From positions 1 to 52,534 of the IMG/VR virus record IMGVR_UViG_3300025411_000647: a DNA stretch of 52,534 nucleotides; one strand, given 5' to 3'. Below the pieces are notes generated by a model. The model saw nothing but the letters and a program-made list of their open reading frames with translations, searched no databases and was not told where the DNA came from. The position numbers and the translations under genes were made by a program. The first letter of the stretch is position 1. Each line of letters begins with the position of its first letter. This document shows, piece by piece, positions 7,821 to 34,702 of the stretch. This DNA is from a virus.

Positions 7821-7828
7821 TGTAAATA
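7821..7828 (+). promoter_or_regulatory. T4-late-like TGTAAATA box
   Basis: TGTAAATA six bases before the ATG at 7835, with no ribosome site in between. It resembles the phage T4 late promoter TATAAATA. It would make an almost leaderless mRNA for the first radical SAM operon. Confidence 0.5.
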
Positions 7829-7834
7829 CTGTCA

Positions 7835-8797
7835 ATGCAATTTTCAAACATACCTTTCGAAAAAATTACTCATTTTGGACAACAAACTATGTTGGATCGT
7901 CCATTATTTAACATAAGTTGGATATTAGGAAGATTTTGTAATTACAAATGTAGCTATTGTTGGCCTTATGCTAGGACTGACAAGCCTGATCACCAACCGC
8001 TTGAAGTATATAAATCTACTGTAGACGAGATTAAGCGTCAAGCACGAGCCAATGGGTTTGACCAGTTCCATTGGTCGTTCAGCGGTGGTGAACCAACTGC
8101 TTACAAGTACTTACTTGATTTGATTAAACATTTGGACGATGGTATCCAAACTCCTTATCAGACTGTACACATGACTACTAATTTGAGTCCTAGTTTAAAT
8201 TGGTGGCGTAGTTGGCATCATACAACAGAACTTTTACAAAGGAGAAGCATCACAGCCAGCTATCATGCAGAGTTTGCCAAAGAACAAGAATTTGGAGATA
8301 AGTGTTTACAATTAATGTACGATCTAGTACATGTTACTATTAACCAAGTGATGGTTCCGGAAAAGTTCTATGAAACACTAGAACGATGCGAACGATTCAG
8401 AGAACGAGGAATCAATGTAACTCTCAAACCACAAAGCAATGACACGGCTACTGCTGTAGTAAATGGGTACACACAAGATATGATTGATATCATGCAAAAT
8501 GATTTTGAACAGCAGGAAGGATATCAAATACGTTTAACAGACGGCACCCAAGATTATTACATAGATCAAGCAGAAAGATTTAATGCCCTAGGATTTAATC
8601 AGTTTGCCGGATGGACTTGCAATAGCGGCTATCAGAGTGTTATAATAAGAGGTAATGAAGTAAAACGAGCATATAGTTGTAAAGAAACAAGTTTAGGTAC
8701 GATAGAAAAATTTACTTTGTTTTCTGCACCTAAACTTTGCACAACAGATAGATGTGTTAGTAGTGCCGATAGCAAAATACCAAAATGTATAAATTAG
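7835..8797 (+). CDS. Radical SAM protein with C-terminal cysteine cluster
   Basis: 320 aa. The radical SAM motif is C35-x3-C39-x2-C42 (CNYKCSYC), with the SAM-binding SGGEP near residue 85. A C-terminal twitch/SPASM-type region has GWTCNSG, YSCKE and a final CTTDRCVSS..KC, enough for one auxiliary iron-sulphur cluster. Such enzymes generate a 5'-deoxyadenosyl radical to abstract hydrogen from peptides, sugars or other substrates. First gene of a plus-strand operon of six overlapping genes, five of them radical SAM. The substrate is unknown. Related in layout to the proteins at 12864-13940 and 13830-14729. Confidence 0.85.
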   Translation: MQFSNIPFEKITHFGQQTMLDRPLFNISWILGRFCNYKCSYCWPYARTDKPDHQPLEVYKSTVDEIKRQARANGFDQFHWSFSGGEPTAYKYLLDLIKHLDDGIQTPYQTVHMTTNLSPSLNWWRSWHHTTELLQRRSITASYHAEFAKEQEFGDKCLQLMYDLVHVTINQVMVPEKFYETLERCERFRERGINVTLKPQSNDTATAVVNGYTQDMIDIMQNDFEQQEGYQIRLTDGTQDYYIDQAERFNALGFNQFAGWTCNSGYQSVIIRGNEVKRAYSCKETSLGTIEKFTLFSAPKLCTTDRCVSSADSKIPKCIN

Positions 8798-9792
8798 AAG
8801 ATATACGGGATGTCCATTTAGAAGTAACAACTAAGTGCCAAGCAAGGTGCCCTATGTGCCCACGACGTATCAATGGAGGAGTTTTGAATCCATTAATGTC
8901 ACTAGTTGAAATAGATTTAGAGACATTTAAACAATGGTTTAGTGAAGAGTTTATTCAACAACTTGATAGTTTGTTTATGTGCGGTAATTTAGGAGATCCT
9001 ATTATTGCACAGGATTCTTTGGAAATTATACGTTACCTGAAAACAGTTAATCCTAACATACGATTAAGTATGCACACTAATGGCAGTGCTAGGAGCACTC
9101 AATGGTGGGAAGCATTAGCCGTTACGGGTACTAGAGTTGTATTTGGTATTGATGGATTAGCAGATACACATTCATTATACAGAATCAATACAGACTGGAA
9201 TAAGATCATAGAAAATGCTGAGGCATTTATTAATGCCGGAGGATATGCAGAGTGGCACATGTTGGTGTTTAAACATAATGAACACCAAATTGAAGAATGT
9301 CGTAGCATGTCAGAACAATTAAAATTTAAAACATTTCAAATTAAACATACAACAAGATTTACCGACGTTAAATTTCCTGTGTTAGACGACACTGGTAAAA
9401 CTATCTATAACTTGTACCCGTCTACTAAGACAGAAGAAATGTTACCGCAAATATTAACTTATGCTAGAGATTTGCCAATGTCACAGATTGATGCCAATTG
9501 TACAATTAACTGTAAAGCAGTTAAATGGAAGCAAATTTATGTTGCGGCTTCGGGTAATGTAGGGCCTTGCTGTTGGATGGACTTTAAAGAAAAATTACAT
9601 AAACAAAATACACGTATTGACTATATGGATAAAATAGGAATGTTTCCTAATCTGTACGAACAATCTTTGGCAGACATTTTTAATTCTGGGTATTTTGATA
9701 AAATTTCAAATACTTGGGATAACGAACCTGTATTTGAATGTGCTAAACAATGTGGTAAGTTTGACAAGTCGGGATCGCAATATGAATGTTGA
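8785..9792 (+). CDS. Radical SAM/SPASM protein, paralogue of 10371-11456
   Basis: 335 aa. Radical SAM cysteines C18, C22, C25 (CQARCPMCPR); the GNLGDP segment replaces the usual GGEP. A SPASM-like C-terminus has NCTINCKAVKW, a GPCCWMDF cluster and CAKQCGKF at the end. The segment NAEAFINAGGYAEWHMLVFKHNEHQ is shared almost word for word with the gene two places downstream, so the two arose by duplication. The start overlaps the previous gene by 13 bases, and the methyltransferase-like gene overlaps its end. Confidence 0.85.
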   Translation: MYKLEDIRDVHLEVTTKCQARCPMCPRRINGGVLNPLMSLVEIDLETFKQWFSEEFIQQLDSLFMCGNLGDPIIAQDSLEIIRYLKTVNPNIRLSMHTNGSARSTQWWEALAVTGTRVVFGIDGLADTHSLYRINTDWNKIIENAEAFINAGGYAEWHMLVFKHNEHQIEECRSMSEQLKFKTFQIKHTTRFTDVKFPVLDDTGKTIYNLYPSTKTEEMLPQILTYARDLPMSQIDANCTINCKAVKWKQIYVAASGNVGPCCWMDFKEKLHKQNTRIDYMDKIGMFPNLYEQSLADIFNSGYFDKISNTWDNEPVFECAKQCGKFDKSGSQYEC

Positions 9793-10378
9793 TACAGAAC
9801 ACTTACACTATTGGATGCAGGCCATACGTCAAAGTCCAGATCCTATGCGGACTATGGACGCCTTTTGGTCTGGTCAACTTAAAAGCAAAGAGTGGCTAAT
9901 CGATTGTTTAGACGAACATGTGCATTTTGCTTCTAGTATCGATATACATGGCGGATGGGTAGGTGTGTTAGCCAGTATGTTATTTCAAAGTAATATACCT
10001 ATCACTACTATTCGTAGCATTGACATTGATCCGTCCTGCGAACCTATCTCCACTATGATGAATAAGGGAGAAGAAATAAAAGGACGCTTTAAAGCGGTCA
10101 CTTCCGATATGTGTGTTATCCGTAGTGATGCAGATATTGTTATTAACACTAGCTGTGAGCATATTACACAAGACCAATACGACTTATGGTTGAGTGGTAT
10201 GCCTTACGATACATTATTTGTTTTACAAAGTAATAACTATAATATTCCCGAGCATGTCCGTATCGCTAATAGCTTAGAAGAATTTAAAGAACAATGCGAT
10301 GTTAATGTATTATGGGCAGGCGAATTAGAATTGCCATTATATACTCGTTATATGATTATAGGAAAACAAAATGTTTAA
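9782..10378 (+). CDS. Class I methyltransferase-like protein
   Basis: 198 aa from ATG 9782, chosen because the longer frame from 9695 lies inside the preceding gene. SIDIHGGWVGVLASMLF is in the place of the SAM-binding loop, IRSIDIDPSCEP fits the acidic motif II, and ADIVINTSCEH is the post-motif strand. This suggests a Rossmann-fold methyltransferase, though the glycine loop is atypical. It sits between two paralogous radical SAM genes with overlaps of 11 and 8 bases, so it probably acts on the same substrate. Confidence 0.65.
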   Translation: MNVDTEHLHYWMQAIRQSPDPMRTMDAFWSGQLKSKEWLIDCLDEHVHFASSIDIHGGWVGVLASMLFQSNIPITTIRSIDIDPSCEPISTMMNKGEEIKGRFKAVTSDMCVIRSDADIVINTSCEHITQDQYDLWLSGMPYDTLFVLQSNNYNIPEHVRIANSLEEFKEQCDVNVLWAGELELPLYTRYMIIGKQNV

Positions 10379-11456
10379 GTTTAATGAACTTAAGAGTGTT
10401 CATATAGAAATCAGCAACAGATGCCAAGCATCGTGTCCTATGTGTCCACGTAACATACACGGTGGAATCGAAAATCCATTATTACCTATTAATGAATGGT
10501 CCTTTGATGATTTTGTTAAAATATTTCCTAAAGATGTTTTATCGCAACTTAGGACAATTAATTTTTGTGGAAACTTTGGCGATCCATTAATGAATAATGA
10601 TCTTATCTACATGTGCAAGTATGTTAAAGATAATGCACCTGATATTGAAATACTACTAAACACTAACGGTAGTTTGCGTTCTACTGCTTGGTGGAAAAAA
10701 TTAGCTAGTGTATTACCTGAAAATCATAGAGTAGTATTTGCATTAGATGGACTAGAAGATACTCATAGCATTTATAGGGTAGGAACTAATTTTAATTTAA
10801 TTTTAAAAAATGCTAGAACATTTATCAATGCAGGTGGCATTGCTGAATGGGTGTTTATTAGGTTCAAACATAACGAGCATCAAGTTAATGATGCAGAAGT
10901 ATTATCTAATGAGTTAGGGTTTAAACGATTCAGTGTTAAGAATAGTAGAAGACACGCTCGCCCATTTCCAGTAGTTGATAATCAAGGTAAATTTTTATAC
11001 AACCTTGAACAACCATCGGATAGTGAAGTTAAATTTGTAAGCAAATCTTCTATTCAAGGACATCGGAATTGGCCTAATGCTGATAAAATAAATTGTATGG
11101 CTATTAATGACAAAGAGTTGTATATCGATGCACACTACCAATTAAGCCCTTGTTGCATGATTGGCGCATTTCTTTACACAAACTATGATGTCGAACTGTT
11201 AAAATCCTACAATTTGTTCCAGGAAGATTCGGTTGTTGAAGAAGGCGAATTAGTACGACAGCAAATATTAGGATTTCCAAGATTAAATGTTTTAGAAATG
11301 GGGTTAAAAACAATTATAGAAACGGATGCTTGGCAAACAATGTGGCAACAAAAATGGAAGGACAAGTCTAGTTCAACTTGCATAATAATGTGTGGACCGC
11401 ATAGTCCTTTTATAAAAATAGATGAACAAAAATTTAAGATAGCAGATAATGAATAA
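10371..11456 (+). CDS. Radical SAM/SPASM protein
   Basis: 361 aa. Motif CQASCPMCPR gives C18, C22 and C25; GNFGDP follows. The C-terminal half has KINCMAIND, SPCCMIGAF and CIIMCGPH, a SPASM-type set of cluster ligands. It is the paralogue of 8785-9792 but carries an insertion near residues 280-320. Overlaps by 8 bases on both sides show translational coupling. Confidence 0.85.
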   Translation: MFKFNELKSVHIEISNRCQASCPMCPRNIHGGIENPLLPINEWSFDDFVKIFPKDVLSQLRTINFCGNFGDPLMNNDLIYMCKYVKDNAPDIEILLNTNGSLRSTAWWKKLASVLPENHRVVFALDGLEDTHSIYRVGTNFNLILKNARTFINAGGIAEWVFIRFKHNEHQVNDAEVLSNELGFKRFSVKNSRRHARPFPVVDNQGKFLYNLEQPSDSEVKFVSKSSIQGHRNWPNADKINCMAINDKELYIDAHYQLSPCCMIGAFLYTNYDVELLKSYNLFQEDSVVEEGELVRQQILGFPRLNVLEMGLKTIIETDAWQTMWQQKWKDKSSSTCIIMCGPHSPFIKIDEQKFKIADNE

Positions 11457-12867
11457 AGTATTTTGGTTACAACCGGAAGAAACACAATTAGGTAATTGGC
11501 AACAACAAATTACTGAAGTGTCGGGTAGTCCTAGTTTTTGTGTCTTACCATGGATACATTTAGCAACGCGACCAAATGGCGACATGCGTATATGTTGTGT
11601 TGCTAATGCATCAGGAGCTGATACCGGTGATTATACTGTTGGGTTAGTTAAAATGGAAGACGGCAAGCCTGCTAACTTTTCACATGACTTGCCCACCGAA
11701 GCATTCAACAATGACTATATGAAGTCAGTTCGTAAAACTATGTTAGCAGGTGAAGTGCCTGCTAGTTGTGTTAAATGTTATGAAGAAGAAGCAGAAGGCA
11801 TTGCTAGCAAGCGTATTTGGGAAACTGGTACATGGTACTTAAATGAAAAAATTGACATTAAAGAGTTAATTGCTGAAACAGAATTAGATGGATCTGTTCC
11901 TTATAAATTACAGTACTTAGATCTGCGTTTAGGACACACTTGTAATTTAAAGTGTATTATGTGTAGTCCACACGATAGTAGTATGTGGGTACCAGAACAT
12001 AAAAAAGTATTCCCTATTTTTACCAGTCCATTAATTAAAAAACAAATGAGTTGGGAATCGAGCGAATTTAATAATAACTGGCATGAAAATCCTGCATTCT
12101 GGGAAGAAGTATATGATCAAATTCCTAATATTAAACAATTGTACTTTGCTGGTGGAGAACCTTTATTAATTAAAGAACACAAGGTATTTTTATTAGAAAT
12201 TATTAAACGTGGTTATGCTAAACAAATTAGTTTACGTTACAATACTAACGGCATCTTAGTTAACGATGAAATTATTGATATATGGAGTCAGTTCCGCAAA
12301 GTCAAGGTAGGTGTTAGTTTAGATGGAATCGGCCCGCAAGGCGAGTATATACGTTATCCGTTAGACTGGCGAACTGTGGAAGACAACTTAATTAAGTTAG
12401 ATAACGCACCTGATAATATACAGACTAATATTGCCATGGCCGTACAAATTTTAAACATTATGCACGTTCCTGATTTTATAAAATGGAAAGTGGGTATGAA
12501 CTTTAAGAAGATTAATTTTGATAAAAATGCCGCAGGTCATGTTATGGGTGGTGGGTTAGTCGGCGTACATCTACTTTGGATCCCTACATGGCTGAGTCTT
12601 CGTGTATTACCTAAAAAAGACAAACTAGAAGTTAGAAGATTGTTTGGCGATTTACAGGAATGGTTATGGAAACACTATACTCAGGACAAAGAGTTCTGGG
12701 AAACTAACCCGTATGGCTGGAAACGTTGGGAAGGTATACTAGATTGGATGGACAAAGAAGATCATACAAACTTGCTACCAGATTTTAAAGATTACATTAT
12801 TACAATGGACAAACAGCGTAAGACTAATTTTTCTACTACTTTTCCTGAGCTGGCACATTTAATATGA
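11449..12867 (+). CDS. Twitch/SPASM-first radical SAM protein
   Basis: 472 aa. It opens with an N-terminal cysteine cluster (FCVLPWIHLATRPNGDMRICC, C31/C49/C50, and SCVKCYEE, C107/C110), followed by the radical SAM core with C165, C169 and C172 (CNLKCIMC) and AGGEPLL. This cluster-first layout is found in marine bacterial and phage radical SAM proteins and is shared with 15550-16818. The SAM barrel continues through IRYNTNGI and VSLDGIGPQ. Substrate unknown. Confidence 0.85.
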   Translation: MNKVFWLQPEETQLGNWQQQITEVSGSPSFCVLPWIHLATRPNGDMRICCVANASGADTGDYTVGLVKMEDGKPANFSHDLPTEAFNNDYMKSVRKTMLAGEVPASCVKCYEEEAEGIASKRIWETGTWYLNEKIDIKELIAETELDGSVPYKLQYLDLRLGHTCNLKCIMCSPHDSSMWVPEHKKVFPIFTSPLIKKQMSWESSEFNNNWHENPAFWEEVYDQIPNIKQLYFAGGEPLLIKEHKVFLLEIIKRGYAKQISLRYNTNGILVNDEIIDIWSQFRKVKVGVSLDGIGPQGEYIRYPLDWRTVEDNLIKLDNAPDNIQTNIAMAVQILNIMHVPDFIKWKVGMNFKKINFDKNAAGHVMGGGLVGVHLLWIPTWLSLRVLPKKDKLEVRRLFGDLQEWLWKHYTQDKEFWETNPYGWKRWEGILDWMDKEDHTNLLPDFKDYIITMDKQRKTNFSTTFPELAHLI

Positions 12868-13940
12868 AACAAATAGTTTCAATTGTATCTACGCAACCTA
12901 AAGACCATCTTAACATAGGCTGGGCAACTAGCAACATTTGTAATTTTAAATGTAGGTATTGTTTTCCAGGATCAAACGAAGGAGATGCACCTAATCCTAA
13001 AAATGTCGATTTAATAGTTAACAACATCACACACTTGATCAATCATTACAGAACAACACTAGATAAGAAATTTTTTCACTTAACTGTACTAGGTGGAGAG
13101 CCTACAGTATGGAAGGACTTTGGTAACTTTTTAGAAAAAATTAAATTAGTAGATGGCGTGTATGTATCAATACTATCTAATGGTAGCAGAACCTTGCGTT
13201 GGTGGAGAGAATATGGTGGGTTGATTGACAACTTAACTTTGAGCCTGCACGTTAGTCAAGCAGATCTTGACCACTCTATTCAAGTTGCAGATATTGTCTA
13301 CGGTCTTGGTAAGAAAGTTACAGTACAAGTATTAATGGATACAGACTGTTGGGATCAGTGTGTAGAGGCTGTTGACTACTTGAAAAAAAATAGTCGGTAT
13401 CCTTGGATGATTGAAACTAAACCGGTTGTACATTCAACTGTTGAATATACACCTATACAAACAGAGTACCTAAAATCTAGTTTAAAGAGGTATCCAACTT
13501 TTACATGGTTGCTTAAAAATATCCGTTATTTGTTTAATGGGCATATAAGACTTTATAGAAGTATTGCCAAGTTTAACGACGGTACAAAATTAAAAGCTAA
13601 ACCCTCTACTTACATATTATCAGGCAATACAAAATTTAAAGGATGGAGTTGTGATATTGGTATAGAAAGTATTTTAATCGATCAATACGGTAATATAAAT
13701 GGATCTTGCGGACAAACATTATTCAATACTAACATATTGGATAATAATTTTATATCAAAATTTAACCCTCATTTAGGTGCTACTATATGTAATATGGATG
13801 CTTGTATTTGTTTACCCGCAACACATGCATCAAAGTTTGATTTTGGTCAAGGGAATATCAGCCGCACAAGTGCAGAAGTTCCTATCACATTCGATAGGAT
13901 TAGAAGGAACCAAAAAACTTCCGGTATAGATATTTCCTAA
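12864..13940 (+). CDS. Radical SAM protein with overlong C-terminus
   Basis: 358 aa. Radical SAM motif C26-C30-C33 (CNFKCRYCF), LGGEPTV, and a C-terminal GWSCDIGIESI / GSCGQT / CNMDACICLP cluster region. The last cluster cysteine is near residue 316, after which about 40 residues of ordinary-looking tail run into the opposite-strand gene for 111 bases. The tail is probably an extension after loss of an earlier stop. It is the last gene of the first plus-strand operon. Confidence 0.8.
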   Translation: MKQIVSIVSTQPKDHLNIGWATSNICNFKCRYCFPGSNEGDAPNPKNVDLIVNNITHLINHYRTTLDKKFFHLTVLGGEPTVWKDFGNFLEKIKLVDGVYVSILSNGSRTLRWWREYGGLIDNLTLSLHVSQADLDHSIQVADIVYGLGKKVTVQVLMDTDCWDQCVEAVDYLKKNSRYPWMIETKPVVHSTVEYTPIQTEYLKSSLKRYPTFTWLLKNIRYLFNGHIRLYRSIAKFNDGTKLKAKPSTYILSGNTKFKGWSCDIGIESILIDQYGNINGSCGQTLFNTNILDNNFISKFNPHLGATICNMDACICLPATHASKFDFGQGNISRTSAEVPITFDRIRRNQKTSGIDIS

Positions 13941-14729
13941 ACTACCTCCTACCCGGCAAGTAGCACGATGCACATCGCCGTCCCAATTGATCATTAGGCT
14001 TTCTATACCAGAATTACAACTCCATCCTTTAAATTGATTTTGATGGTTCTTGATCATATCATTAGCATGGTACATCACGGTGTCTACTTTATCTAACCAA
14101 ACTACTGTATTTGCTCCTACTGTAGATTCCATAGCTTTAATAAATTCTAAGTCTGTAGTATTATAACGCATGTCATCGAATAAATCATGATCGCCTTTAG
14201 TCCAGCGTATACGACGGACAGTATTAGGAATATTTCCTAATTGGCATTTAGCTCGTAGTTGCATAGCGGCAGGCATATAATCGTGATGGGCCATAATTTG
14301 TGCTATAACTTTAACCGTCTCTAGTTTATGGATGCTTTCGACGGTATTGAATACACGTTTCCAATCATACTCTAAATGTATACTAAACACATATTGGTCT
14401 ACAGGAAGACCAATATAAAATTCATATGGGCGAGTCCCATTAGTTGTTACACTAATCCAACTTATACCAACATGCTTACAATATTTTACTAACTCGTCAA
14501 ATTTAGGATGTACGCAAGGCTCACCTCCTGTAAAACTTAAACGCACAGGTTTGCCTAATAGCACTAATTGATCAACACAAGATTTTAAAATTTCTATATC
14601 TGTATGTGTGCTAGTATTGTCATGTATTTCACTAGGGCAATAACTACAGTCATAGTTACAACGCTTGCCAAGATTCCATTCAATCTTGATTGTATTCTGA
14701 TGGGGGTATCGACTGGTTACTTTAATCAT
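13830..14729 (-). CDS. Radical SAM protein
   Basis: 299 aa. C24, C28 and C31 (CNYDCSYC), SFTGGEPCVHP, and a C-terminal auxiliary cluster region (GWSCNSGIESL, ATCRVGG, ECDRNFCTC). Same architecture as 12864-13940 and 7835-8797. It begins a minus-strand block with an SGNH protein, another radical SAM enzyme and a PLP enzyme, all joined by four-base overlaps. Confidence 0.85.
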   Translation of the reverse strand: MIKVTSRYPHQNTIKIEWNLGKRCNYDCSYCPSEIHDNTSTHTDIEILKSCVDQLVLLGKPVRLSFTGGEPCVHPKFDELVKYCKHVGISWISVTTNGTRPYEFYIGLPVDQYVFSIHLEYDWKRVFNTVESIHKLETVKVIAQIMAHHDYMPAAMQLRAKCQLGNIPNTVRRIRWTKGDHDLFDDMRYNTTDLEFIKAMESTVGANTVVWLDKVDTVMYHANDMIKNHQNQFKGWSCNSGIESLMINWDGDVHRATCRVGGSLGNIYTGSFLVPSNPIECDRNFCTCAADIPLTKIKL

Positions 14730-15553
14730 AATCTGTTCGGCGGTTGTCGATAAGGCTTTTCAAAGTCTCCAAATATTTTCAGTTGCCATTGTTTTGTTAA
14801 TTCTCTAGCACTATCACTCAACGTGTTATTAGGCCATACCCAATCTAAAAATTTTAATGCTTCCTCGGGGGTAGGGTGTAAGTCGTTATCAGGTACCACT
14901 CTTGATTCAATACGACCATCATTAAACCATTTATAAGTAGCATCTACATTAGTAAATACATCTTGATATAATTCGATCACATCGCGATCATCGAAAAATT
15001 CAGCAATAGCACCGCCTTGATAAACTTCTTGGCTTGTTTTCTTCCACAGTTGTAGTAGAGATTCTTTATCTTCAGATTTCTTAAAAGGTTCTCTTAACTC
15101 TTCGCTATTAAAAAACTCATACCAAGTAAAGTTTGCCCAATCGCATTTTTTGTTTTTTAGTATAGTTTGAATGGCTTTCATGTACGCTAAATCTCTTATT
15201 AAGAAGCCTCTAGTATCTGTACCATATTTTTTTACCCAATCTTTACCGTATATGCGTTCTTGTCCAGAAGATGAAGCAATTAACCATTCGTTGTTAGAAT
15301 ATCTATCTTCTCGTTCCTTTGGACTCCAAAATATAATAACTAAATCATTTTTGTCAAAGTTATATCTAGTATCGGCTTCTATAACACTATTAAAAATATA
15401 ATGGTTGCCTGCACCTGGCTGACCCCAGTTCTCGTAATACTCGATGTCATGGCCGATGATATCTGCCCATGTCAGCCATTTGTAATTAGTAAAACTACAT
15501 CCAAAGGCAAAGAAGCGTTTATATTTTGCAGGATCAAGATTTTTTAGTTTCAT
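14726..15553 (-). CDS. SGNH/GDSL-like hydrolase
   Basis: 275 aa. Ser20 in FAFGCSFT, the glycine and asparagine blocks in WGQPGAGNH (Asn50) and a C-terminal DLHPTPEE that provides the Asp-His pair. SGNH enzymes cleave or transfer acyl esters on sugars, lipids or peptides. It has no signal peptide, so it works in the cytoplasm. ATGA overlaps join it to the radical SAM genes on both sides. A second SGNH protein with only motif-level similarity is at 21040-21870. Confidence 0.7.
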   Translation of the reverse strand: MKLKNLDPAKYKRFFAFGCSFTNYKWLTWADIIGHDIEYYENWGQPGAGNHYIFNSVIEADTRYNFDKNDLVIIFWSPKEREDRYSNNEWLIASSSGQERIYGKDWVKKYGTDTRGFLIRDLAYMKAIQTILKNKKCDWANFTWYEFFNSEELREPFKKSEDKESLLQLWKKTSQEVYQGGAIAEFFDDRDVIELYQDVFTNVDATYKWFNDGRIESRVVPDNDLHPTPEEALKFLDWVWPNNTLSDSARELTKQWQLKIFGDFEKPYRQPPNRL

Positions 15554-23731: not shown

Positions 23732-23732
23732 T

Positions 23733-25830: not shown

Positions 25831-25838
25831 GTGGCAAA

Positions 25839-25846: not shown

Positions 25847-25861
25847 GATAATTATTATACT

Positions 25862-27078: not shown

Positions 27079-27903
27079 CAAACGTTCCTGGATTTTTTCA
27101 AAAGGCCAACGTTTGTGTATGCCAAACCACTGATCGGCAATAACTACATCGCCGTCCTTCCAATCGTGATGGTAACAATATTTGTCCTGTATTATATGTT
27201 CGTGTAACGATTTTAATATAGGTAAACTTTCTTCTCTAGTCATTCCTTCGTATCGTTCTAATTGATAAAATGAATGATACATACCAAATTCACCCGTTGA
27301 GTGCTGTATAACTACTGGTTGACTAGGAGCATTTTCATCTATGGCAATGCCACCTGCAATTGGTCCTCTAAAATCTGCACTTCTATAATAAATGCCTTTA
27401 AGGTCTTTAATTTGATCTTTAGTAGCCTGATCAAGATCTTTATAAGCTAACACACTATTAGTGTAACTTGTTCTAGAACCCTCTGTTCCTGTTACTCCAT
27501 ACAGCCATACTAATGGACCACGTTGTTTACCGTGATTGCTATTTAAAAGATGCGGTTGATTATTATGCCATTCCATAGCATCTACATATCCAGCTGTTCC
27601 TGGTTTTCCATGTTCGTTAAGAGCTCCAGTTACACGAGTAATATGCCCGTTAGGGTCATTTGTTAAATCTGCTGTTTCGTGTTCAAACTCAGCTTGGCCA
27701 GGAGCATATTCAGTAGTAACATTACCAAACATGTATCCTACTTTTAATTCATCTTGTATAGTTAATGATTGATTTCTAAATACTATCAGGGTGCTAGTTT
27801 TCATCAAGTCAGATGCTTGTTTGATATCTGCAGGTGTTGCTGTTCGAAGATCAAAATCATCGACTATAACAGCCCATCCGTTGTTGTCTAAGTGATATTT
27901 CAT
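27046..27903 (-). CDS. TauD/TfdA-like dioxygenase with HxN site
   Basis: 285 aa. The overall layout fits TauD: LIVFRNQSLT near residue 45, a facial-triad segment MEWHNNQPHLL at 110, a variable middle, and WFGIHKRWPF (H263) with LLHRMVFGY (R278). However, the triad reads H113-N114-N115, so the carboxylate of the usual HxD/E is an asparagine. In halogenases this residue is Gly/Ala; an Asn could still coordinate iron, change chemistry or mark an inactive enzyme. It follows the adenylating enzyme by 4 bases. Confidence 0.8.
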   Translation of the reverse strand: MKYHLDNNGWAVIVDDFDLRTATPADIKQASDLMKTSTLIVFRNQSLTIQDELKVGYMFGNVTTEYAPGQAEFEHETADLTNDPNGHITRVTGALNEHGKPGTAGYVDAMEWHNNQPHLLNSNHGKQRGPLVWLYGVTGTEGSRTSYTNSVLAYKDLDQATKDQIKDLKGIYYRSADFRGPIAGGIAIDENAPSQPVVIQHSTGEFGMYHSFYQLERYEGMTREESLPILKSLHEHIIQDKYCYHHDWKDGDVVIADQWFGIHKRWPFEKIQERLLHRMVFGYVS

Positions 27904-27907
27904 TAGG

Positions 27908-29365
27908 TTATCCTTTTTTATTAATAGATTCTATTCCGTTTGTAGCCACTAGTCTTACCATTGCTGGGCTAAATTTCCATCCGTCGATTGTAAATTTTTC
28001 TCTTGGTCCTACAACTTGTGTACGTATACTATAGTAAGGAGGATCGATATGTGGAATCATTTTTTTGTTCAATTCAGCAAGATCGAGTTCTTGGTTTGTA
28101 CGGATATACCAACATTCAAAATCGCTATCAAACACAACATCGAAATCTTTTTCACGTATTAAATCAGTAACTTCTTCAATAACTGAATTTAAAAAATAAG
28201 AGTAAACAGTTTTACCATTGCAACGATATAAATCTTGACGACCTAGAAATGTAAAAACATTGTCTTTAACCTCAAATCTGTCGCCTGTATGAATTACATT
28301 ATTGTTGTAGTCAATCACTTGTAATAAATTATCTTCGACTACTGTAACTTCGTTAAAGAAAGGTGTCGGGCTTCCATAGGTTCTAACATTCCAATCTTTA
28401 TAATTAGATTGATCTATTTCGCAATAGAGAATAGGACCACCTGTTTCTTGACTTCCAAATTGCGGTAATAGCACGTATTTGAATTCTCCTACTAGTCTGT
28501 TAATATATTCTTCTTTAACACTTCCTACATAATGTATTCTCATTTGATCATGCTGTTTTTTATTGATATCTAATGCTTGGTAGAACCAATCCATTTGATT
28601 AAAGAAAATTGCAATACGATTAATTTTTTCAGATTGTATTTTGTCAATAACATATTCGCGAAATGCTAATTCTCTATCGCCACCGCCCCACCCTACCGGA
28701 GCATGAAAATGAGACTTGCATCTATTAACCATAGGTAAAAAGTATACACCAAGAATCACTCCATGCTGTAAATTTTTATCATGCCATACTTTTTCGTCTT
28801 CTTTTAAATTATACAAATTAGCATTAACATTCATATTTTTAAAAAAGAATTCGTGTGTATGTTCTATAATTTTAGGTGTTCCAGTTGTACCAGAACTTGT
28901 TGTTACTATTATATTGTCAGTGGGTTCACACCAAACAGGGGATACAATTTTATCAGGAGCATAGGTTTCTAAAAAATTAACATTTATTTTTTTATTTTCA
29001 AATTGAGGTTGATCGAATCCTATAGGATAAATCATGTCCCATAAAATAATATCAGATGTGTAATAAATGGGCATTTGCTCCATTGCTAATATTGTTTTTG
29101 GAAAATCAGAAATAATAAAGTTTAGCCCAAGCTCTGCACATGCAAAAAGCCATATTGGATAGTTAGGCCAGTATGTCATTGACATTACTACTCGTTGACC
29201 TTTCTTCACATTAAATTCTGTTATTAGATATGTTTTGGCAAGATCAATTTTTTCACTAAGCTGTTCTCTATTCATGTAGATAGGAAAAATATTATCACTG
29301 GAGTCCATATTAATTCCAGTTAGTTCAAATTTGGGATGTAGTATGTCCCTAGTGATTATATCCAT
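27908..29365 (-). CDS. ANL-superfamily adenylating enzyme
   Basis: 485 aa. Phosphate-binding loop TTSSGTTGTPKIIEHT at 155-170, GSQETGG (A5), HTGDRF (A7), FLGRQDLYRCNGKTVY (A8, hinge region) and a terminal PREKFTIDGWKF whose lysine takes the place of the catalytic A10 lysine. Enzymes of this family activate carboxylic or amino acids as acyl-AMP. There is no carrier domain and no carrier-protein gene nearby, so the acyl acceptor may be CoA, an amine or a macromolecule. Adenylating enzymes are rare in phages. Ribosome site AAAGGTAA; late box at 29428-29435. Confidence 0.85.
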   Translation of the reverse strand: MDIITRDILHPKFELTGINMDSSDNIFPIYMNREQLSEKIDLAKTYLITEFNVKKGQRVVMSMTYWPNYPIWLFACAELGLNFIISDFPKTILAMEQMPIYYTSDIILWDMIYPIGFDQPQFENKKINVNFLETYAPDKIVSPVWCEPTDNIIVTTSSGTTGTPKIIEHTHEFFFKNMNVNANLYNLKEDEKVWHDKNLQHGVILGVYFLPMVNRCKSHFHAPVGWGGGDRELAFREYVIDKIQSEKINRIAIFFNQMDWFYQALDINKKQHDQMRIHYVGSVKEEYINRLVGEFKYVLLPQFGSQETGGPILYCEIDQSNYKDWNVRTYGSPTPFFNEVTVVEDNLLQVIDYNNNVIHTGDRFEVKDNVFTFLGRQDLYRCNGKTVYSYFLNSVIEEVTDLIREKDFDVVFDSDFECWYIRTNQELDLAELNKKMIPHIDPPYYSIRTQVVGPREKFTIDGWKFSPAMVRLVATNGIESINKKG

Positions 29366-29427
29366 TAAATTACCTTTGATTTATTTTTTGACTCTTTTTA
29401 ATAACGATATATACATGAAGTCAAGAA

Positions 29428-29435
29428 TATTTATA
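29428..29435 (-). promoter_or_regulatory. T4 late promoter consensus TATAAATA
   Basis: An exact TATAAATA on the minus strand, 62 bases upstream of the adenylating-enzyme gene, followed by TATATA-rich sequence and a normal ribosome site. Fits a conventional T4-type late promoter with a leader. Confidence 0.6.
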
Positions 29436-29447
29436 TAAGGTATAAAG

Positions 29448-30881
29448 ATGGTAGTGAAATTCCGAACTGAAAAACAACAGTCGATAGTTATCTGTATACT
29501 AGATATAATTGATAATTGTAAAAGCGGATATGCTAGAGAAATATGCGTTAATTTAACTGATTTTTTAATTCACCGTTTTGACATGCACGGGTATGATATC
29601 TTTATCAGTAAAGACGAGGATAGTCTATTACAAGCCTCTGTAGAAAATGGATACAGTCATGCTGTTGTAATTTCAGCTGGCACTAGTTTAAAACTTTCGG
29701 ATAATTTATTTGGAGCTATCAAGAGTGCTTGTCAGGAAGATTTTTTTATAGCAGGTCATATTCTTGATAGAAAAGATCATTCTTATTATAAAAATGCCTG
29801 CTTTGAATTGCATCAGCAATTTTATATAGTTAATTTAGAACAATATAAAGAATTAGGATCACCTACTATAGGACAAGAAGAATGGGTAGAGTATCAACAA
29901 CTTGCTCCTATACGCAGTAAAGAATGTTTGTACGATGATCCAGAAATTCCAGTATGGATGAAAAAAGGCACTGAGATTCACACTTATTCTGTTAAACTTC
30001 ACGGATGGAACATATTAAATGTTGCCTTGGAAAATGATAAAGTGTTATTAACATTGAATCAAAAAATACGAGATAGTAAAAAATATCTGTATTATGAATA
30101 TGATCATGTATTTTTAAAAACATTAGCCGACATAAAATATTATCAATTTTTTGCTACTAATTTTTTTGCTGGGTGGAACAGCGATCAATTAAGAGAAGAA
30201 TTACCATTTGAAGGACCAATTGAACAATACGCTACTGTCGGGATTGGATTTAATTGGATTAAGAATTTAGAACTTGTCGGTTTCACTGACAAGACTAAAA
30301 TTATCTTTACAGACATTAATTATAACTGTTTAATGTTTATGAAGAAAATGGTCGAAGACTGGGATGGAAATAACTATGCAGATTTTTATTGGGAACATAA
30401 ACCAATGTTACCTAACAATCCTCCTCATATTTCTGACGAGTATCGACAGCAGATAGCTAATCAATGGGAAAAGTTTTTAACAACAATCGATAACTGGCCA
30501 GCACTATGGCATCAAGTTAAACAGTTAGAGTATGATTATATTCTTATAGATTATACAGCATCGTTTAACTTTGACTGGTTAGCAACAGGTTGTAAAACAA
30601 TATTAAATCTTAGCAATTTATATAATCATTCCCCGTTTGTTGCTATGAATAGTTTAAAATATCGCGTTAGATGCGAAAACAACTTAATCCGTCAATTAAA
30701 AGATAAAGATCCCAATATTACACTATTGATAACATCCAGGGCAGCAGATGGGTTTTGGAAAATTAAAAATAATCAATATTTAGATAAGATTAGTAATTTT
30801 ACATACACTGACATAAGTAAATTAAAAATTCCTAAATGGCATGAAACAGATTGGACTTACGATGGATTTAACTTATATTAA
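29448..30881 (+). CDS. Large hypothetical protein, possible two-domain
   Basis: 477 aa. The N-terminal 150 residues alternate strands and helices (IVICILDIID, SHAVVISAGTSLK, FFIAGHILDRKDHS) as in glycosyltransferase-like or Rossmann folds; the later YATVGIGFNWIKNLELVGFT and IIFTDINYNCLMFM suggest a nucleotide- or SAM-binding domain. No conserved catalytic motif is clear. AAGG nine bases before ATG. The PP-loop gene overlaps its end by 20 bases, suggesting a shared task. Confidence 0.7.
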   Translation: MVVKFRTEKQQSIVICILDIIDNCKSGYAREICVNLTDFLIHRFDMHGYDIFISKDEDSLLQASVENGYSHAVVISAGTSLKLSDNLFGAIKSACQEDFFIAGHILDRKDHSYYKNACFELHQQFYIVNLEQYKELGSPTIGQEEWVEYQQLAPIRSKECLYDDPEIPVWMKKGTEIHTYSVKLHGWNILNVALENDKVLLTLNQKIRDSKKYLYYEYDHVFLKTLADIKYYQFFATNFFAGWNSDQLREELPFEGPIEQYATVGIGFNWIKNLELVGFTDKTKIIFTDINYNCLMFMKKMVEDWDGNNYADFYWEHKPMLPNNPPHISDEYRQQIANQWEKFLTTIDNWPALWHQVKQLEYDYILIDYTASFNFDWLATGCKTILNLSNLYNHSPFVAMNSLKYRVRCENNLIRQLKDKDPNITLLITSRAADGFWKIKNNQYLDKISNFTYTDISKLKIPKWHETDWTYDGFNLY

Positions 30882-31542
30882 CATAAACGGAATACCTATA
30901 GGTATATACAAAGATGGACCGATTGGTGTAGGAATAAGCGGAGGAGCAGATAGTGCTATTTTACTTTATATTTTAATGTGTAATACCAATCAACCTGTAC
31001 ACATTTATAATATGTGGTCGAGCAGTAGAAAATATTCATTTGCTAAAAGTGTAAAATCTGTTATTGAAACATGTTCTAAGCTAACAGGCAACACTAATTA
31101 TGTAGAACATTTGTTTCAAGTCGAGCCTAGGGAAACTATCGAATTGTATTGCAACCAACTTAACTCTGCTCTTAATAAGAAAGAAATTGATATGTTTTAC
31201 ATGGGGTTGACCGCGTTTCCTCCTAAAGAAGTCTATATGAAGTTTGATGAACAACAGCAAGATTGGCATAATAAGTTTCGAGATCCGGACGTAGAACATC
31301 CTTTGTTTGGATTGACTATAGAAGAAAGTACAGATATGATTTCTAATATAGATAAAGTATACAGTCCATTTCGTAATTACAATAAAAAAGATATTGCTAA
31401 ACTTTACAAAGCACTCGACCTTGAAACAACATTATTTCCAATTACACGAAGTTGCGAAAATGATAATCATATTGAATCTCATTGCGGTAAATGCTGGTGG
31501 TGCCAAGAAAGATTGTGGGCTTTTGGTAAACTTGGAGACTAA
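30862..31542 (+). CDS. PP-loop ATPase, QueC-like
   Basis: 226 aa from MDLTYI at 30862 (an upstream ATG at 30841 is also possible). The ATP-pyrophosphatase loop GISGGADSAIL has S26-G-G-A-D30-S31. The C-terminus RSCENDN..HCGKCWWCQERLWAF holds four cysteines like the zinc site of QueC (7-cyano-7-deazaguanine synthase). Related PP-loop enzymes adenylate a carbonyl and install nitrogen or sulphur. No other queuosine genes are visible here, so a different amidation/nitrile-type reaction in the island is equally likely. Confidence 0.8.
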   Translation: MDLTYININGIPIGIYKDGPIGVGISGGADSAILLYILMCNTNQPVHIYNMWSSSRKYSFAKSVKSVIETCSKLTGNTNYVEHLFQVEPRETIELYCNQLNSALNKKEIDMFYMGLTAFPPKEVYMKFDEQQQDWHNKFRDPDVEHPLFGLTIEESTDMISNIDKVYSPFRNYNKKDIAKLYKALDLETTLFPITRSCENDNHIESHCGKCWWCQERLWAFGKLGD

Positions 31543-32184
31543 ATGAAAGAATATTTTCAGTCGGACGTTCGTTGTTTAAAATTAGATATAGAATTACCGT
31601 ATGATGACATGTGTAAAGAAGCATTTGCTTTACTCGATAGATTTACACCACATAGAGGTGATGATCATGCTGGATGGGAAAGTTTAACTATACATGGATT
31701 AGGTTGGAATAAACACGAAAGCTATAGCACTTACGGTTATGCTAAAGGTAAAGATGCTAGTAAAGATATGCACTGGACAGAAATAGCAGACTTATGTCCT
31801 ATAACATCTAAATGGCTTAAAGAAATATTTCCTTGCAATAGGTACGGCAGAGTTAGATTTATGTTGTTAAGATCTGGCGGGCATATTTCTAAACATAATG
31901 ATTCAAGCATGAAACTAGTTGAAAATATAAATGTAGCTCTTAATAACCCTGTAGGCTGTAAATGGATATGGGGAGATGGCGAAGAATTAATTATGGAACC
32001 TGGCGGTGTTTATGCCATGAATCTTTATTATGATCATATGTTAGTTAATGATAGCAACGAGGATCGCATGCACATGATTATTGCTAGGCACGATGCACTC
32101 GATAGTTGGAAAACATTGATAGAGGATGCTGCTAATAAACAAGGTGTTACGGGCGACTATATTATAATAGACGAATTACCTTGA
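31543..32184 (+). CDS. Asp/Asn-hydroxylase-like 2OG-Fe(II) protein
   Basis: 213 aa starting directly after the PP-loop stop. Active-site set: H118 and D120 (GGHISKHNDSS), H165 (LYYDHMLVND) and R175 (EDRMHMIIARHD), the spacing of aspartyl beta-hydroxylases. The N-terminal 100 residues are specific. It ends 9 bases inside the convergent neighbour. Confidence 0.8.
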   Translation: MKEYFQSDVRCLKLDIELPYDDMCKEAFALLDRFTPHRGDDHAGWESLTIHGLGWNKHESYSTYGYAKGKDASKDMHWTEIADLCPITSKWLKEIFPCNRYGRVRFMLLRSGGHISKHNDSSMKLVENINVALNNPVGCKWIWGDGEELIMEPGGVYAMNLYYDHMLVNDSNEDRMHMIIARHDALDSWKTLIEDAANKQGVTGDYIIIDELP

Positions 32185-32745
32185 AAAGACAATACTAAAT
32201 GCCAAACTAATTCTATCAGTTTCTTCGGTATTTGTTTTTACACCGTGTGCTAGCCATCCAGGAAACAATAATAATTTACCTACTACAGGAGTATGCTCGT
32301 GTCTTTTTACATATTTCTGATAACAGAGAGACGAGATTGCTGCACCAACAGGTGAATCAAAGAATATTTCTCCGTCAGTTTGAGTAGTTTGAAAATAATA
32401 TACACCAGCAATATCATGAGTATGATGTGTGTGAACATGAGTATGCCCGCCTTGAGAATTTTTTACAATCCAGGATGTTCTTTTATATGGTCTTGGTTCA
32501 AACCCAATTTCTTTACAATATTCTTTTAAATGATAATCAATAGATTGATCAAGAGCTATCATTTGTTTTTCTACAATTATATCTTTGCTAACATTTGTAG
32601 TTTCAAAAGTTTTCCCCCATTTATAATAGTTAACTGAATCATCATATTGAATAGTTACTAACGCATTAGATATTTCTGTTTGAATATCTTTTTGATTTTC
32701 TAAAAAACAACTGTATATGGGTGTTGAAAATAAGTTTTCAATCAT
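32176..32745 (-). CDS. 2OG-Fe(II) oxygenase, TIGR02466-like
   Basis: 189 aa. It starts with FSTPIY, the family's usual opening, and has a histidine-rich HTHHTHDIAGVYYF, then LLLFPGWLAHGVKTN with H167 and DRISLAFSI with R178. At least six such enzymes occur in this window. The segment HTHVHTHHTH has more histidines than needed for iron. Confidence 0.85.
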   Translation of the reverse strand: MIENLFSTPIYSCFLENQKDIQTEISNALVTIQYDDSVNYYKWGKTFETTNVSKDIIVEKQMIALDQSIDYHLKEYCKEIGFEPRPYKRTSWIVKNSQGGHTHVHTHHTHDIAGVYYFQTTQTDGEIFFDSPVGAAISSLCYQKYVKRHEHTPVVGKLLLFPGWLAHGVKTNTEETDRISLAFSIVFSR

Positions 32746-33482
32746 ACCGGTATTCCAATTTTTTCTTTAAACTCGTCTGAAAATCTTCCGTTAATTCTTA
32801 ACGTATAAGTAGGACGTTGAATAGGCAAACCGCCATGCCAGTCTCGTTCGTTCCAGTATGCAACTCTAGTATTCATGAAGGTACGTTCTTGTGTTTCAGG
32901 ATTTAAAATATAAAATGGTCTGTCAGTGTCTGTTTTAATATGAATAAACTCTGGAACAAAGGGCCTGCCTTTTTCATCGGGAGTTTCCCCGTCCTCTTTA
33001 GGATCAAGATGCTCCCATGGGATTCCACCAGCATCTATAGATATTAGATTTGAACCGTATAAACTTTTTAATGTTCCGTTAGTTACAAAACTTTGAATCC
33101 ATTTTAGTAAACCTGGAAAGTGTTCAGACACTTCTCCAATGACATTATTTGCTCCGATTACCGGGTACAGCCGATAAAAACAATATGCACCAAACGCATT
33201 TTTTAAATAATCAGTAAGTTGATTATAAGTTAATCCCTTGCCAGCTATTTTCATCGGATCATCTTCTGGTAATGCGTTCCACATACTAACTACTTCGTAT
33301 AATGGATTAACTTTTATACCTTGTGCATTTGGATGAATAGTGCCTTCAGGAATTCTTTGTATACCGTTAACACTTAAATGAAAGGCAGTAGCTATTCCTC
33401 TACAAATCTCAGGACGTAAGGCATCAAACTCTGTTAAGTCTACATGTTTTGCTAAATCTATATAAATGCGATCGTATATCAT
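32742..33482 (-). CDS. 2OG-Fe(II) oxygenase, paralogue of 22396-23199
   Basis: 246 aa. H158 and D160 (WEHLDPKED), H216 (RDWHGGLP) and R229 (YTLRINGRF). It shares FIHIKTDTDRPFYILNPETQ with the paralogue. ATGA overlaps at both ends. Confidence 0.8.
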   Translation of the reverse strand: MIYDRIYIDLAKHVDLTEFDALRPEICRGIATAFHLSVNGIQRIPEGTIHPNAQGIKVNPLYEVVSMWNALPEDDPMKIAGKGLTYNQLTDYLKNAFGAYCFYRLYPVIGANNVIGEVSEHFPGLLKWIQSFVTNGTLKSLYGSNLISIDAGGIPWEHLDPKEDGETPDEKGRPFVPEFIHIKTDTDRPFYILNPETQERTFMNTRVAYWNERDWHGGLPIQRPTYTLRINGRFSDEFKEKIGIPV

Positions 33483-33787
33483 ATTTCTTCCACAATTTTG
33501 TTAGTTGTAATGTTGTGCCAATTGTTGTATCGAAATTGTATAACTTTTTCTTGATACTGTAAGATTTTGTCGTTCAAAAATTCTGTATAAGCATCATGAG
33601 ATTTAAAAATTAATGTTTTAGTTTGTGTCGAGTAATCTTTACTAATACTAGTAGACATGCTAATTAATTTATTAGTATCTTGAAAATGCTGTTTAATATA
33701 TTCTTCAATACCATGATCACTATGATGAAATTGATCAATTGGGGTTCGGTCCAGTCTTCTTACACTAATTAATTCTAATTTTATCAT
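33479..33787 (-). CDS. Hypothetical protein
   Basis: 102 aa, basic and polar with no membrane segment. No motif recognised. Four-base overlaps on both sides place it firmly in the operon of oxygenases and the nitroreductase-like gene; a small partner or even a substrate protein is conceivable. Confidence 0.65.
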   Translation of the reverse strand: MIKLELISVRRLDRTPIDQFHHSDHGIEEYIKQHFQDTNKLISMSTSISKDYSTQTKTLIFKSHDAYTEFLNDKILQYQEKVIQFRYNNWHNITTNKIVEEI

Positions 33788-34383
33788 GTGTAGTCCTTGA
33801 TAAAATCAACTTCAAGTTTTGGGCAAGATACAAACAAGCTAGCTCTTGTCCAATCCCAGTTATGTGGACTATCGGGTATTAACTTACGACCTATACAGAT
33901 AAATGTTCTTACTGGAAAATCATCATCTGTTTTAGATGCTACAAACTCTTCATAGTCTAAATGTAAATATTCTTGAAGTTCGGCAACTCGAGGATCATGA
34001 TAGTCTAAGCTGTTTTGAAATGCTAACGCATAACCTCTTTTCAAAACTTCCATTCCTATTTTAGAATAAAGCCTTCCTAAATCAATTAAAGATTTTCCGT
34101 TGTCTCGATCAATAGGAGGAAGAACAATTAACAAAGGTGCCCACAATGAAGGAAGTTTAAATTCACTATTAAACTCTCCACTTCTATTCCAATGTCCTAT
34201 ATAATATAATTTTTTGATAATTTCTTTGTCTTGTATAACACTTTTTTTAGCTATTGGATTTTCATTTAAAAAATCATCTATCATACTGCTTAGATACTGC
34301 ACAGTTTCGTTATCAACGGGAGTGTCGATATCAAATGATCGATTAGCATGAGATAATGTATGATTTAAAGTAATGTTATACAT
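33784..34383 (-). CDS. Possible nitroreductase-like protein
   Basis: 199 aa. The segment RLYSKIGMEVLKRGYALAFQ, then ELQEYLHLDYEEF and FPVRTFICIGR resembles the helix and final strand of FMN nitroreductases (AxxNxxLxAxxxGL .. IxxGxP). The opening RSFDIDTPV would be the phosphate-binding part, but a clear RRSxRxF is lacking. Alternatives are open. Confidence 0.5.
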   Translation of the reverse strand: MYNITLNHTLSHANRSFDIDTPVDNETVQYLSSMIDDFLNENPIAKKSVIQDKEIIKKLYYIGHWNRSGEFNSEFKLPSLWAPLLIVLPPIDRDNGKSLIDLGRLYSKIGMEVLKRGYALAFQNSLDYHDPRVAELQEYLHLDYEEFVASKTDDDFPVRTFICIGRKLIPDSPHNWDWTRASLFVSCPKLEVDFIKDYT

Positions 34384-34702
34384 TAATTAGTACCTCAAAG
34401 TTTTTAGGTGAATTTGAATCATCTATACTATAAGGTATATTATTGTTTTGTAAAAAACATTCTAATGAACCTATAGCCAATCCAGTATGGTGATGACTTT
34501 CGTAAAAAGTAAAGGAATCTGCCATTTTAGCTTCGTCATCGATTCTTTCATCAATTTCGAAATACCCAGTAGTAGGTATAAAATTTATCTTAAGGGTATT
34601 ATTTTGTTTTGTTATAATGCATTCAAAATAAACTCTCCCGCATCTTGCAGGAGAATTTTTTATTACATTTTTAATTGATTCTAACAGATGCGGATATTTC
34701 AT
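34376..34702 (-). CDS. Hypothetical protein, first gene of operon
   Basis: 108 aa. Predicted alpha/beta, with CGRVYFECIITKQ and SHHHTGLAIGSLECF. No family recognised. The ATG is 5 bases after a GGTAAATA box and lacks a ribosome site, so translation may be leaderless. Confidence 0.65.
   Translation of the reverse strand: MKYPHLLESIKNVIKNSPARCGRVYFECIITKQNNTLKINFIPTTGYFEIDERIDDEAKMADSFTFYESHHHTGLAIGSLECFLQNNNIPYSIDDSNSPKNFEVLINV

What the first reader, a model, noticed from the sequence alone, without database searches (positions are those of the whole stretch)
7821..34702. 27-kb phage island of ten radical SAM enzymes with oxygenases, ANL, PLP, PP-loop and SGNH proteins
Ten proteins have the CxxxCxxC radical SAM motif, nine are 2OG-Fe(II) oxygenase-like, and with them come an adenylating enzyme, a QueC-like ATPase, a PLP enzyme, two SGNH hydrolases and a methyltransferase-like protein. 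Nearly all genes overlap by 1-20 bases in alternating operons, so they are one functional unit. Several have auxiliary-cluster (SPASM/twitch) domains that usually act on peptides. I found no precursor peptide. This may be a phage pathway that modifies its tail proteins, the host surface, DNA or a small molecule, and I know of no described system with this set.
Basis: partly seen in the sequence, partly recalled or inferred. Interest (0 to 1): 0.95.

Follow-up and report, generated by a model that had tools for sequence, protein, structure and literature searches.

The report
Phage island of many tailoring enzymes
Large T4-like viruses of freshwater bacteria carry a conserved 27-kb block of about 30 enzymes, ten of them radical SAM enzymes, that looks like an assembly line for heavily decorating one unknown molecule, most likely on a cell or virion surface; nobody knows what it makes.

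Summary
Window 7835-34702 encodes ten radical SAM proteins above the Pfam cut-off, nine proteins that fit 2OG-Fe(II) oxygenases, and ANL, QueC-like, PLP-like, SGNH-like and methyltransferase-like proteins, in eight alternating-strand blocks, 99.4% coding. A marker gene of the island (g31) occurs in 389 viral contigs but was not found in 84,980 species genomes by the same scan. In 80 loci gene order is largely kept around a phage-only core (g31 oxygenase, g35/g27 kinase fold, g36) with exchangeable accessories; other contigs add a tryptophan halogenase, sulfotransferase, aminotransferase or amidinotransferase. Long contigs hold 7-17 radical SAM genes each; many carry T4-type Gp23. Relatives of single modules lie in Bdellovibrionota chromosomes, Vibrio phage K566 and Campylobacter phage CP220, each time with glycosyltransferases nearby. 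No precursor peptide, PqqD domain or general thymidylate synthase was found. I favour a surface glycoconjugate-tailoring pathway (0.4) over virion-protein hypermodification (0.25). Radical-SAM-rich modules in T4-like phages were reported in 2010 (CP220, 11 proteins), so this is a much richer variant of a known but unexplained kind. The substrate remains unproven.

The parts
7835..8797 (+). g15 radical SAM, C-terminal auxiliary-cluster cysteines (C262, C302, C307)
   Evidence: PF04055 1e-12; cysteines conserved in all 64 relatives
8785..9792 (+). g16 radical SAM/SPASM
   Evidence: PF04055 6e-9, SPASM 2e-7
9776..10378 (+). g17 methyltransferase-like (motif only)
   Evidence: no Pfam/PDB match; GGW and IDxD motifs conserved to Bdellovibrionota
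10371..11456 (+). g18 radical SAM, paralogue of g16
   Evidence: PF04055 6e-8
11449..12867 (+). g19 N-terminal-twitch radical SAM
   Evidence: NF033640 396 bits, cut-off 170
12864..13940 (+). g20 radical SAM with C-terminal auxiliary cysteines
   Evidence: PF04055 5e-13
13830..14729 (-). g21 radical SAM with C-terminal auxiliary cysteines; overlaps g20 convergently by 111 bp
   Evidence: PF04055 7e-11
14726..15553 (-). g22 SGNH-hydrolase-like (GCSF, GxxGAGN, DxHP motifs only)
   Evidence: sequence; no Pfam or NCBIfam hit
15550..16818 (-). g23 N-terminal-twitch radical SAM
   Evidence: NF033640 335 bits, cut-off 170
16802..17653 (-). g24 PLP-enzyme-like, fold type I motifs (D159, SLSKG)
   Evidence: invariant D159 and K187; no profile hit
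17692..18357 (+). g25 AspH-like 2OG oxygenase
   Evidence: PF05118 2e-4, just under cut-off; motif in 65/65 relatives
18354..19898 (+). g26 radical SAM with B12-binding-like N-terminal domain
   Evidence: PF04055 2e-12, PF02310 0.0015; PhpK family 60 bits, far under its cut-off of 600
19895..20590 (+). g27 kinase-fold protein, paralogue of g35
   Evidence: aligned with g35
20583..21074 (+). g28 small 2OG-oxygenase-like
   Evidence: invariant H88, D90, H145
21040..21870 (-). g29 SGNH-hydrolase-like
   Evidence: weak Lipase_GDSL_3, E 0.09
21872..22396 (-). g30 small 2OG-oxygenase-like
   Evidence: HxD...H motif
22396..23199 (-). g31 core 2OG-oxygenase-like marker of the island
   Evidence: EHxD...H...R invariant; in 389 viral contigs
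23204..23785 (-). g32 small 2OG-oxygenase-like, paralogue of g30
   Evidence: HxD...H motif
23733..24827 (-). g33 radical SAM with N-terminal zinc ribbon
   Evidence: PF23545 1e-13, PF04055 2e-12
24793..25830 (-). g34 radical SAM with N-terminal zinc ribbon
   Evidence: PF23545 3e-14; profile hits 7TOL tetraether synthase 2e-23
25862..26542 (+). g35 core protein-kinase-fold protein without HRD/DFG catalytic residues
   Evidence: AlphaFold2 pLDDT 92; kinase folds E 4e-6, Z up to 12.7
26530..27078 (+). g36 core protein, GNAT-like by eye only
   Evidence: conserved family; no profile hit
27046..27903 (-). g37 TauD-type 2OG dioxygenase
   Evidence: PF02668 2e-29
27908..29365 (-). g38 ANL adenylating enzyme
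   Evidence: PF00501 4e-14
29448..30881 (+). g39 GT-A-like domain without evident DxD, plus methyltransferase-like domain
   Evidence: AlphaFold2 pLDDT 89; PBCV-1 capsid glycosyltransferase Z 11.1, EgtD/NNMT Z about 9
30841..31542 (+). g40 QueC-like PP-loop protein
   Evidence: PF06508 2e-9, match confined to the C-terminal part
31543..32184 (+). g41 AspH-like 2OG oxygenase
   Evidence: PF05118 8e-11
32176..32745 (-). g42 2OG-FeII_Oxy_5
   Evidence: PF13759 2e-16
32742..33482 (-). g43 2OG-oxygenase-like, paralogue of g31
   Evidence: aligned with g31, motif kept
33479..33787 (-). g44 unknown
   Evidence: conserved in relatives
33784..34383 (-). g45 unknown
   Evidence: 83% identical in sister contig
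34376..34702 (-). g46 unknown, island edge
   Evidence: 74% identical in sister contig

Best explanation
The island is a conserved tailoring-enzyme cassette of large T4-like phages. Shown: it is a syntenic unit with a phage-only core (g31 oxygenase-like, g35/g27 kinase fold, g36, small oxygenases) and an exchangeable set of radical SAM, oxygenase, transferase and hydrolase genes. Inferred: the enzymes act in turn on one shared scaffold. Radical SAM enzymes (5'-deoxyadenosyl radical) and 2OG oxygenases (Fe(IV)=O) open C-H bonds; methyltransferase-like, PLP, ANL/PP-loop and SGNH enzymes then methylate, aminate, amidate or de-acylate. Most likely, and inferred only from the neighbourhoods of relatives, the scaffold is a surface glycoconjugate: the host envelope glycan changed during infection to hide receptors from rival phages, or a glycan attached to the virion. 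Phages would differ in their decorations because the surface is under diversifying pressure.
For: Conserved order and co-occurrence: g35/27 near g31 in 80/80 loci, g36 69/80, twitch radical SAM 68/80; g35-g36 adjacent and opposite in strand to g31 in 56/80. Purifying selection on the island genes. The twitch radical SAM family lies beside glycosyltransferases in Vibrio phage K566 (five radical SAM with two GT8, a GT4-like gene, an LpxC-like gene and an annotated PagP) and in Bdellovibrionota chromosomes (GT2 genes); in Campylobacter phage CP220 other radical SAM families of the island lie with two nucleotide-diphosphosugar-transferase-domain proteins. g39, kept next to g41 in Bdellovibrionota and next to or one gene from it in phages, has a GT-A-like domain closest to a viral capsid glycosyltransferase. 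Relatives' islands add FkbM methyltransferase, sulfotransferase, hexapeptide acyltransferase and class III aminotransferase. Pelagimyophage radical SAM cassettes vary within the host-recognition cluster (PMC7029224).
Against: The window has no canonical glycosyltransferase or nucleotide-sugar gene; the GT-A-like domain of g39 shows no DxD. The phage-only core was not found in the bacterial glycosyltransferase loci, so those loci may not share its substrate. AspH-like oxygenases and SPASM enzymes elsewhere often act on polypeptides. The island lies 60-80 kb from the capsid genes in two long contigs. No biochemical data exist.
Confidence: 0.4

Rival explanations
1. Virion-protein hypermodification: the enzymes modify side chains of a phage protein such as a tail fibre, to widen or vary host recognition.
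For: SPASM and auxiliary-cluster radical SAM enzymes, AspH-like hydroxylases and, in relatives, a tryptophan halogenase (5e-88) and amidinotransferase suit amino-acid side chains. A fibre-like protein g47 lies at the island edge here and within range in 39/80 loci.
Against: No RRE/PqqD domain in 12 records; capsid and portal genes far away in two long contigs; g47 is near only half of the cores; relatives sit with glycosyltransferases.
Confidence: 0.25
2. A diffusible small molecule or RiPP-like peptide made during infection, from a scaffold or precursor encoded elsewhere.
For: The mix of ANL, PLP, radical SAM, 2OG and (in relatives) halogenase genes resembles natural-product clusters.
Against: The island is 99.4% coding with no gap over 82 bp, so no separate precursor gene fits between genes; no PqqD; no transporter was noticed in the island.
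Confidence: 0.15
3. Nucleic-acid hypermodification (phage DNA, or the phage's 27 tRNAs).
For: QueC-like, PLP, radical SAM and 2OG enzymes occur in such pathways; the tRNA array is interleaved with more oxygenase-like genes.
Against: Thymidylate synthase homologue in only 2 of 12 records; g40 is far under the QueC equivalog cut-off (27 against 150 bits); no RNA-binding domain was reported for the island proteins scanned.
Confidence: 0.08
4. No single pathway: a hot spot where unrelated metabolic genes collect.
For: Accessory genes come and go between phages.
Against: Order, strand pattern and a constant core recur across contigs with divergent sequences; motifs intact and selection purifying.
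Confidence: 0.12

Closest known systems
Radical-SAM-rich interchangeable module of Campylobacter phages CP220/CPt10 (PMC2853527)
   Same: T4-like phage, 11-12 radical SAM proteins, five in one exchangeable cluster; g16/18-like (1e-30) and g20/21-like (1e-22) families shared; its amidinotransferase has a relative (28% identity) in distant relatives of this island
   Different: no hit to the oxygenase, kinase-fold or g36 families of this island in the 100 kb compared; CP220 has two glycosyltransferase-domain proteins and an amidinotransferase that the window lacks
Radical SAM cluster of Vibrio phage K566 (OZ196521)
   Same: five twitch-type radical SAM proteins matching g19/g23 profiles (5e-24 to 9e-41) in a 255-kb phage
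   Different: with GT8/GT4-like, LpxC-like and annotated PagP genes; no hits to the phage-only core among the proteins tested
Bdellovibrionota chromosomal radical SAM loci
   Same: g15 + g16/18 + g19 in 12 of 57 loci, eight with g17; g39 next to g41 in three loci
   Different: GT2 genes present in those annotated; none of g25, g27, g28, g30-g32, g35, g36 found
Radical SAM cassettes in the host-recognition cluster of pelagimyophages (PMC7029224)
   Same: radical SAM gene cassettes that differ between related myophages
   Different: only reported in passing; not compared gene by gene here

Membership tests
NF033640 twitch-domain radical SAM subfamily (g19, g23) | curated score cut-off 170 bits | tested here: met
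   396 and 335 bits
SPASM domain (g16) | PF13186 cut-off 21.5 bits | tested here: met
   31.5 bits
Tetraether lipid synthase Tes (g34) | equivalog cut-off 450 bits | tested here: not met
   73.6 bits; shares the radical SAM core (and the PF23545 zinc ribbon) only
QueC (g40) | TIGR00364 cut-off 150 bits | tested here: not met
   26.9 bits, C-terminal match only
Active protein kinase (g35) | protein-kinase fold | tested here: met
Active protein kinase (g35) | HRD aspartate and DFG motif | tested here: not met
   replaced at the corresponding positions of the alignment (KYSMHP, SINYF), judged by eye
RiPP cluster | precursor peptide gene in the cluster | tested here: inconclusive
   no gap over 82 bp in the island; a precursor elsewhere or overlapping is not excluded
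RiPP cluster | PqqD-type recognition element | tested here: not met
   0 of 12 records; records may be fragments
Phage thymidine hypermodification | dUMP hydroxymethylase (thymidylate synthase family) | tested here: inconclusive
   2 of 12 records, window none; fragments
Campylobacter CP220-type radical SAM module | shared radical SAM families | tested here: met
   g16/18 1e-30, g20/21 1e-22
Campylobacter CP220-type radical SAM module | amidinotransferase in the module | tested here: not met
   not identified in the window; present in distant relatives of the island
Surface-glycan biosynthesis locus | canonical glycosyltransferase in the locus | tested here: inconclusive
   only g39 with a GT-A-like fold and no evident DxD
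Surface-glycan biosynthesis locus | altered surface glycan | not testable with these tools
   needs mass spectrometry

The most novel reading that the evidence does not exclude
A phage-only biosynthetic system in which a conserved core (g31, g35/g27, g36) builds or presents a scaffold of a kind not known before, on which each phage lineage installs its own combination of radical, oxygenase, halogenase and transferase decorations: a viral chemical-diversity locus comparable to O-antigen diversification.
Probability: 0.3. Interest if true: 0.9.

Novelty: new variant of a known kind. Interest (0 to 1): 0.74.

Why it matters
Ten or more radical SAM enzymes in one virus, kept in order over many contigs, means that large phages carry an elaborate chemistry whose product is unknown. 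It would turn the unexplained radical SAM modules of Campylobacter phages and pelagimyophages into one testable question, and it offers dozens of uncharacterised enzymes, including a phage-only core that was not found in cellular genomes.

Tried and rejected
DNA hypermodification: thymidylate synthase is not general. RiPP: no PqqD, no room for a precursor between genes. Tes-type lipid synthesis by g33/g34: only the core domain matches. Promoter and terminator scans gave counts equal to shuffled sequence (88 against 88.6 and 10 against 10.1), and the T4 late promoter word is not placed at the island's blocks apart from one copy at 29428 on the strand opposite to g39. GenBank phages gave no hit for g26, g31, g36, g38 or g41 at 1e-5. 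Profile searches of the PDB gave nothing convincing for g17, g24, g26, g31, g36 and g39. The g31 scan of genome contigs found no relative, but it rests on short exact peptide patterns, so distant bacterial homologues are not excluded. Literature searches found no description of this gene set; subscription journals and preprints were not searchable.
Full report
Observation. The window is a 52,534-base virus record. Between 7835 and 34702 it encodes 32 genes (g15-g46) in eight blocks of alternating strand; 24 of 31 junctions overlap, the region is 99.4% coding and the largest gap is 82 bp. Ten proteins exceed the Pfam radical SAM cut-off. g19 and g23 are full members of the N-terminal-twitch subfamily NF033640 (396 and 335 bits against 170); g16 has a SPASM domain; g26 has a weak B12-binding match; g33 and g34 have the zinc ribbon of PF23545 and a core that resembles tetraether lipid synthase without reaching its cut-off. 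Auxiliary-cluster cysteines are conserved at the C-terminus of g15, g16, g18, g20 and g21 and at the N-terminus of g19 and g23. Nine proteins fit 2OG oxygenases, four by profile (one just under cut-off) and five by a conserved facial-triad motif. ANL (g38), QueC-like (g40) and TauD (g37) are clear at family level; PLP (g24), methyltransferase (g17) and SGNH (g22, g29) rest on motifs.

It is conserved. A sister contig (39.7 kb) has the same genes in the same order, mostly at 60-93% identity, again with ten radical SAM proteins, but lacks g40 and g42 and has two TauD genes. Scans with g26, g33/34 and g31 found 31 loci, 72 loci and 389 matching stretches of viral contigs; the g31 scan of 84,980 species genomes found none. 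Across 80 loci centred on g31, g35/g27 is always present, g28/30/32 in 71, g36 in 69, twitch radical SAM in 68, g25 in 64, g33/34 in 60 and g26 in 59, whereas PLP, QueC-like, TauD and ANL are variable. Some of these contigs come from the same lakes and are not independent. Island genes show dN/dS of 0.02-0.30, with dS close to saturation. Two long contigs read almost in full (186 and 201 kb) carry such an island; half of twelve records tested have a T4-type Gp23 and fourteen records have 7-17 radical SAM matches each. In the two long contigs the island is about 60-80 kb from Gp23 and portal.

Unknown proteins. g35, the most constant partner of g31, was predicted at pLDDT 92 and has a protein-kinase fold (Foldseek E 4e-6; Z up to 12.7 at 3.6 A over 192 residues), but the HRD and DFG residues are replaced in g35 and its paralogue g27 keeps only an ID at the DFG position (judged by eye); it may be a pseudokinase or have another chemistry. 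g39 (pLDDT 89) has an N-terminal domain closest to GT-A glycosyltransferases, first of all one that glycosylates the capsid of virus PBCV-1 (Z 11.1, 3.1 A over 149 residues), and a C-terminal domain like EgtD/NNMT methyltransferases (Z about 9). These Z values are moderate, and the GT-A-like domain lacks an evident DxD.

Accessory genes in relatives. Islands of other contigs add a tryptophan halogenase (5e-88), class III aminotransferase, sulfotransferase, FkbM and other methyltransferases, a hexapeptide acyltransferase, further SGNH proteins, and an amidinotransferase-like protein 28% identical to that of Campylobacter phage CP220.

Relatives elsewhere. CP220 (11 radical SAM proteins; PMC2853527) shares the g16/18 and g20/21 radical SAM families and has an exchangeable module with two glycosyltransferase-domain proteins. 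Vibrio phage K566 has five twitch radical SAM genes among GT8 and GT4-like genes, near an LpxC-like gene and an annotated PagP. Bdellovibrionota chromosomes hold g15 + g16/18 + g19 (+ g17) modules and the g39-g41 pair, often with GT2 genes; the phage-only core was not found there. Pelagimyophage radical SAM cassettes vary inside the host-recognition cluster (PMC7029224).

Interpretation. Synteny, co-occurrence and selection show a functional unit with a constant core and exchangeable decorations. That the enzymes act on one scaffold is inference. The neighbourhoods of the relatives point to surface glycoconjugates more than to any other substrate (0.4); virion-protein hypermodification is the main rival (0.25). 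RiPP-type synthesis lacks precursor and PqqD, and DNA hypermodification lacks a general base-modifying synthase. Because radical-SAM-rich modules in T4-like phages are already on record, though unexplained, I class this as a new variant of a known kind.

Limits. No host is known, all close relatives are metagenomic fragments, several annotations rest on motifs, and no biochemical evidence exists.

Noticed in passing
window 7689-7799, minus strand, between g14 and g15: Unannotated tRNA-like RNA ending in CCA behind a TTGACA-17-TAAACT promoter-like site; acceptor stem shows compensatory changes in L018, L042 and L049 and the sequence recurs upstream of g15 there. ARAGORN does not call it and Rfam tRNA scores 18 bits against 29.
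   Followed up: partly
window 52370-52534, minus strand: Permuted tmRNA (RF04321, 55 bits) cut by the window end: a possible host clue.
   Followed up: no
window 37443-47414: 27 tRNA genes interleaved with further oxygenase-like genes (for example g52, g53, g57, g58, g59, g61, g62; by eye).
   Followed up: no
window 34751-35764: g47, fibre-like protein with a conserved RRGTDAQR...YTTDT N-terminus, found near g31 in 39 of 80 loci; highest dN/dS of the genes compared with the sister contig (0.34).
   Followed up: partly
window 48199-48705: Phage-borne rubrerythrin (PF02915 2e-14).
   Followed up: no
L252, L253, L256-L260, L264, L267, L270 (mostly Bdellovibrionota contigs): Chromosomal clusters of the same radical SAM modules, often beside GT2 genes and proteins with a DGDN motif; I found no description of them.
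   Followed up: partly
L290 15413-16679 (Vibrio phage K566): Phage-encoded LpxC-like protein (TIGR00325 3e-33, below cut-off) next to an annotated PagP, close to the radical SAM cluster.
   Followed up: partly
L191 14344-15954 and relatives: Flavin-dependent tryptophan halogenase (PF04820 5e-88) inside the islands of distant relatives.
   Followed up: partly
G004 142797-149000: A second run of four twitch radical SAM genes just outside the main island of a 201-kb contig.
   Followed up: no
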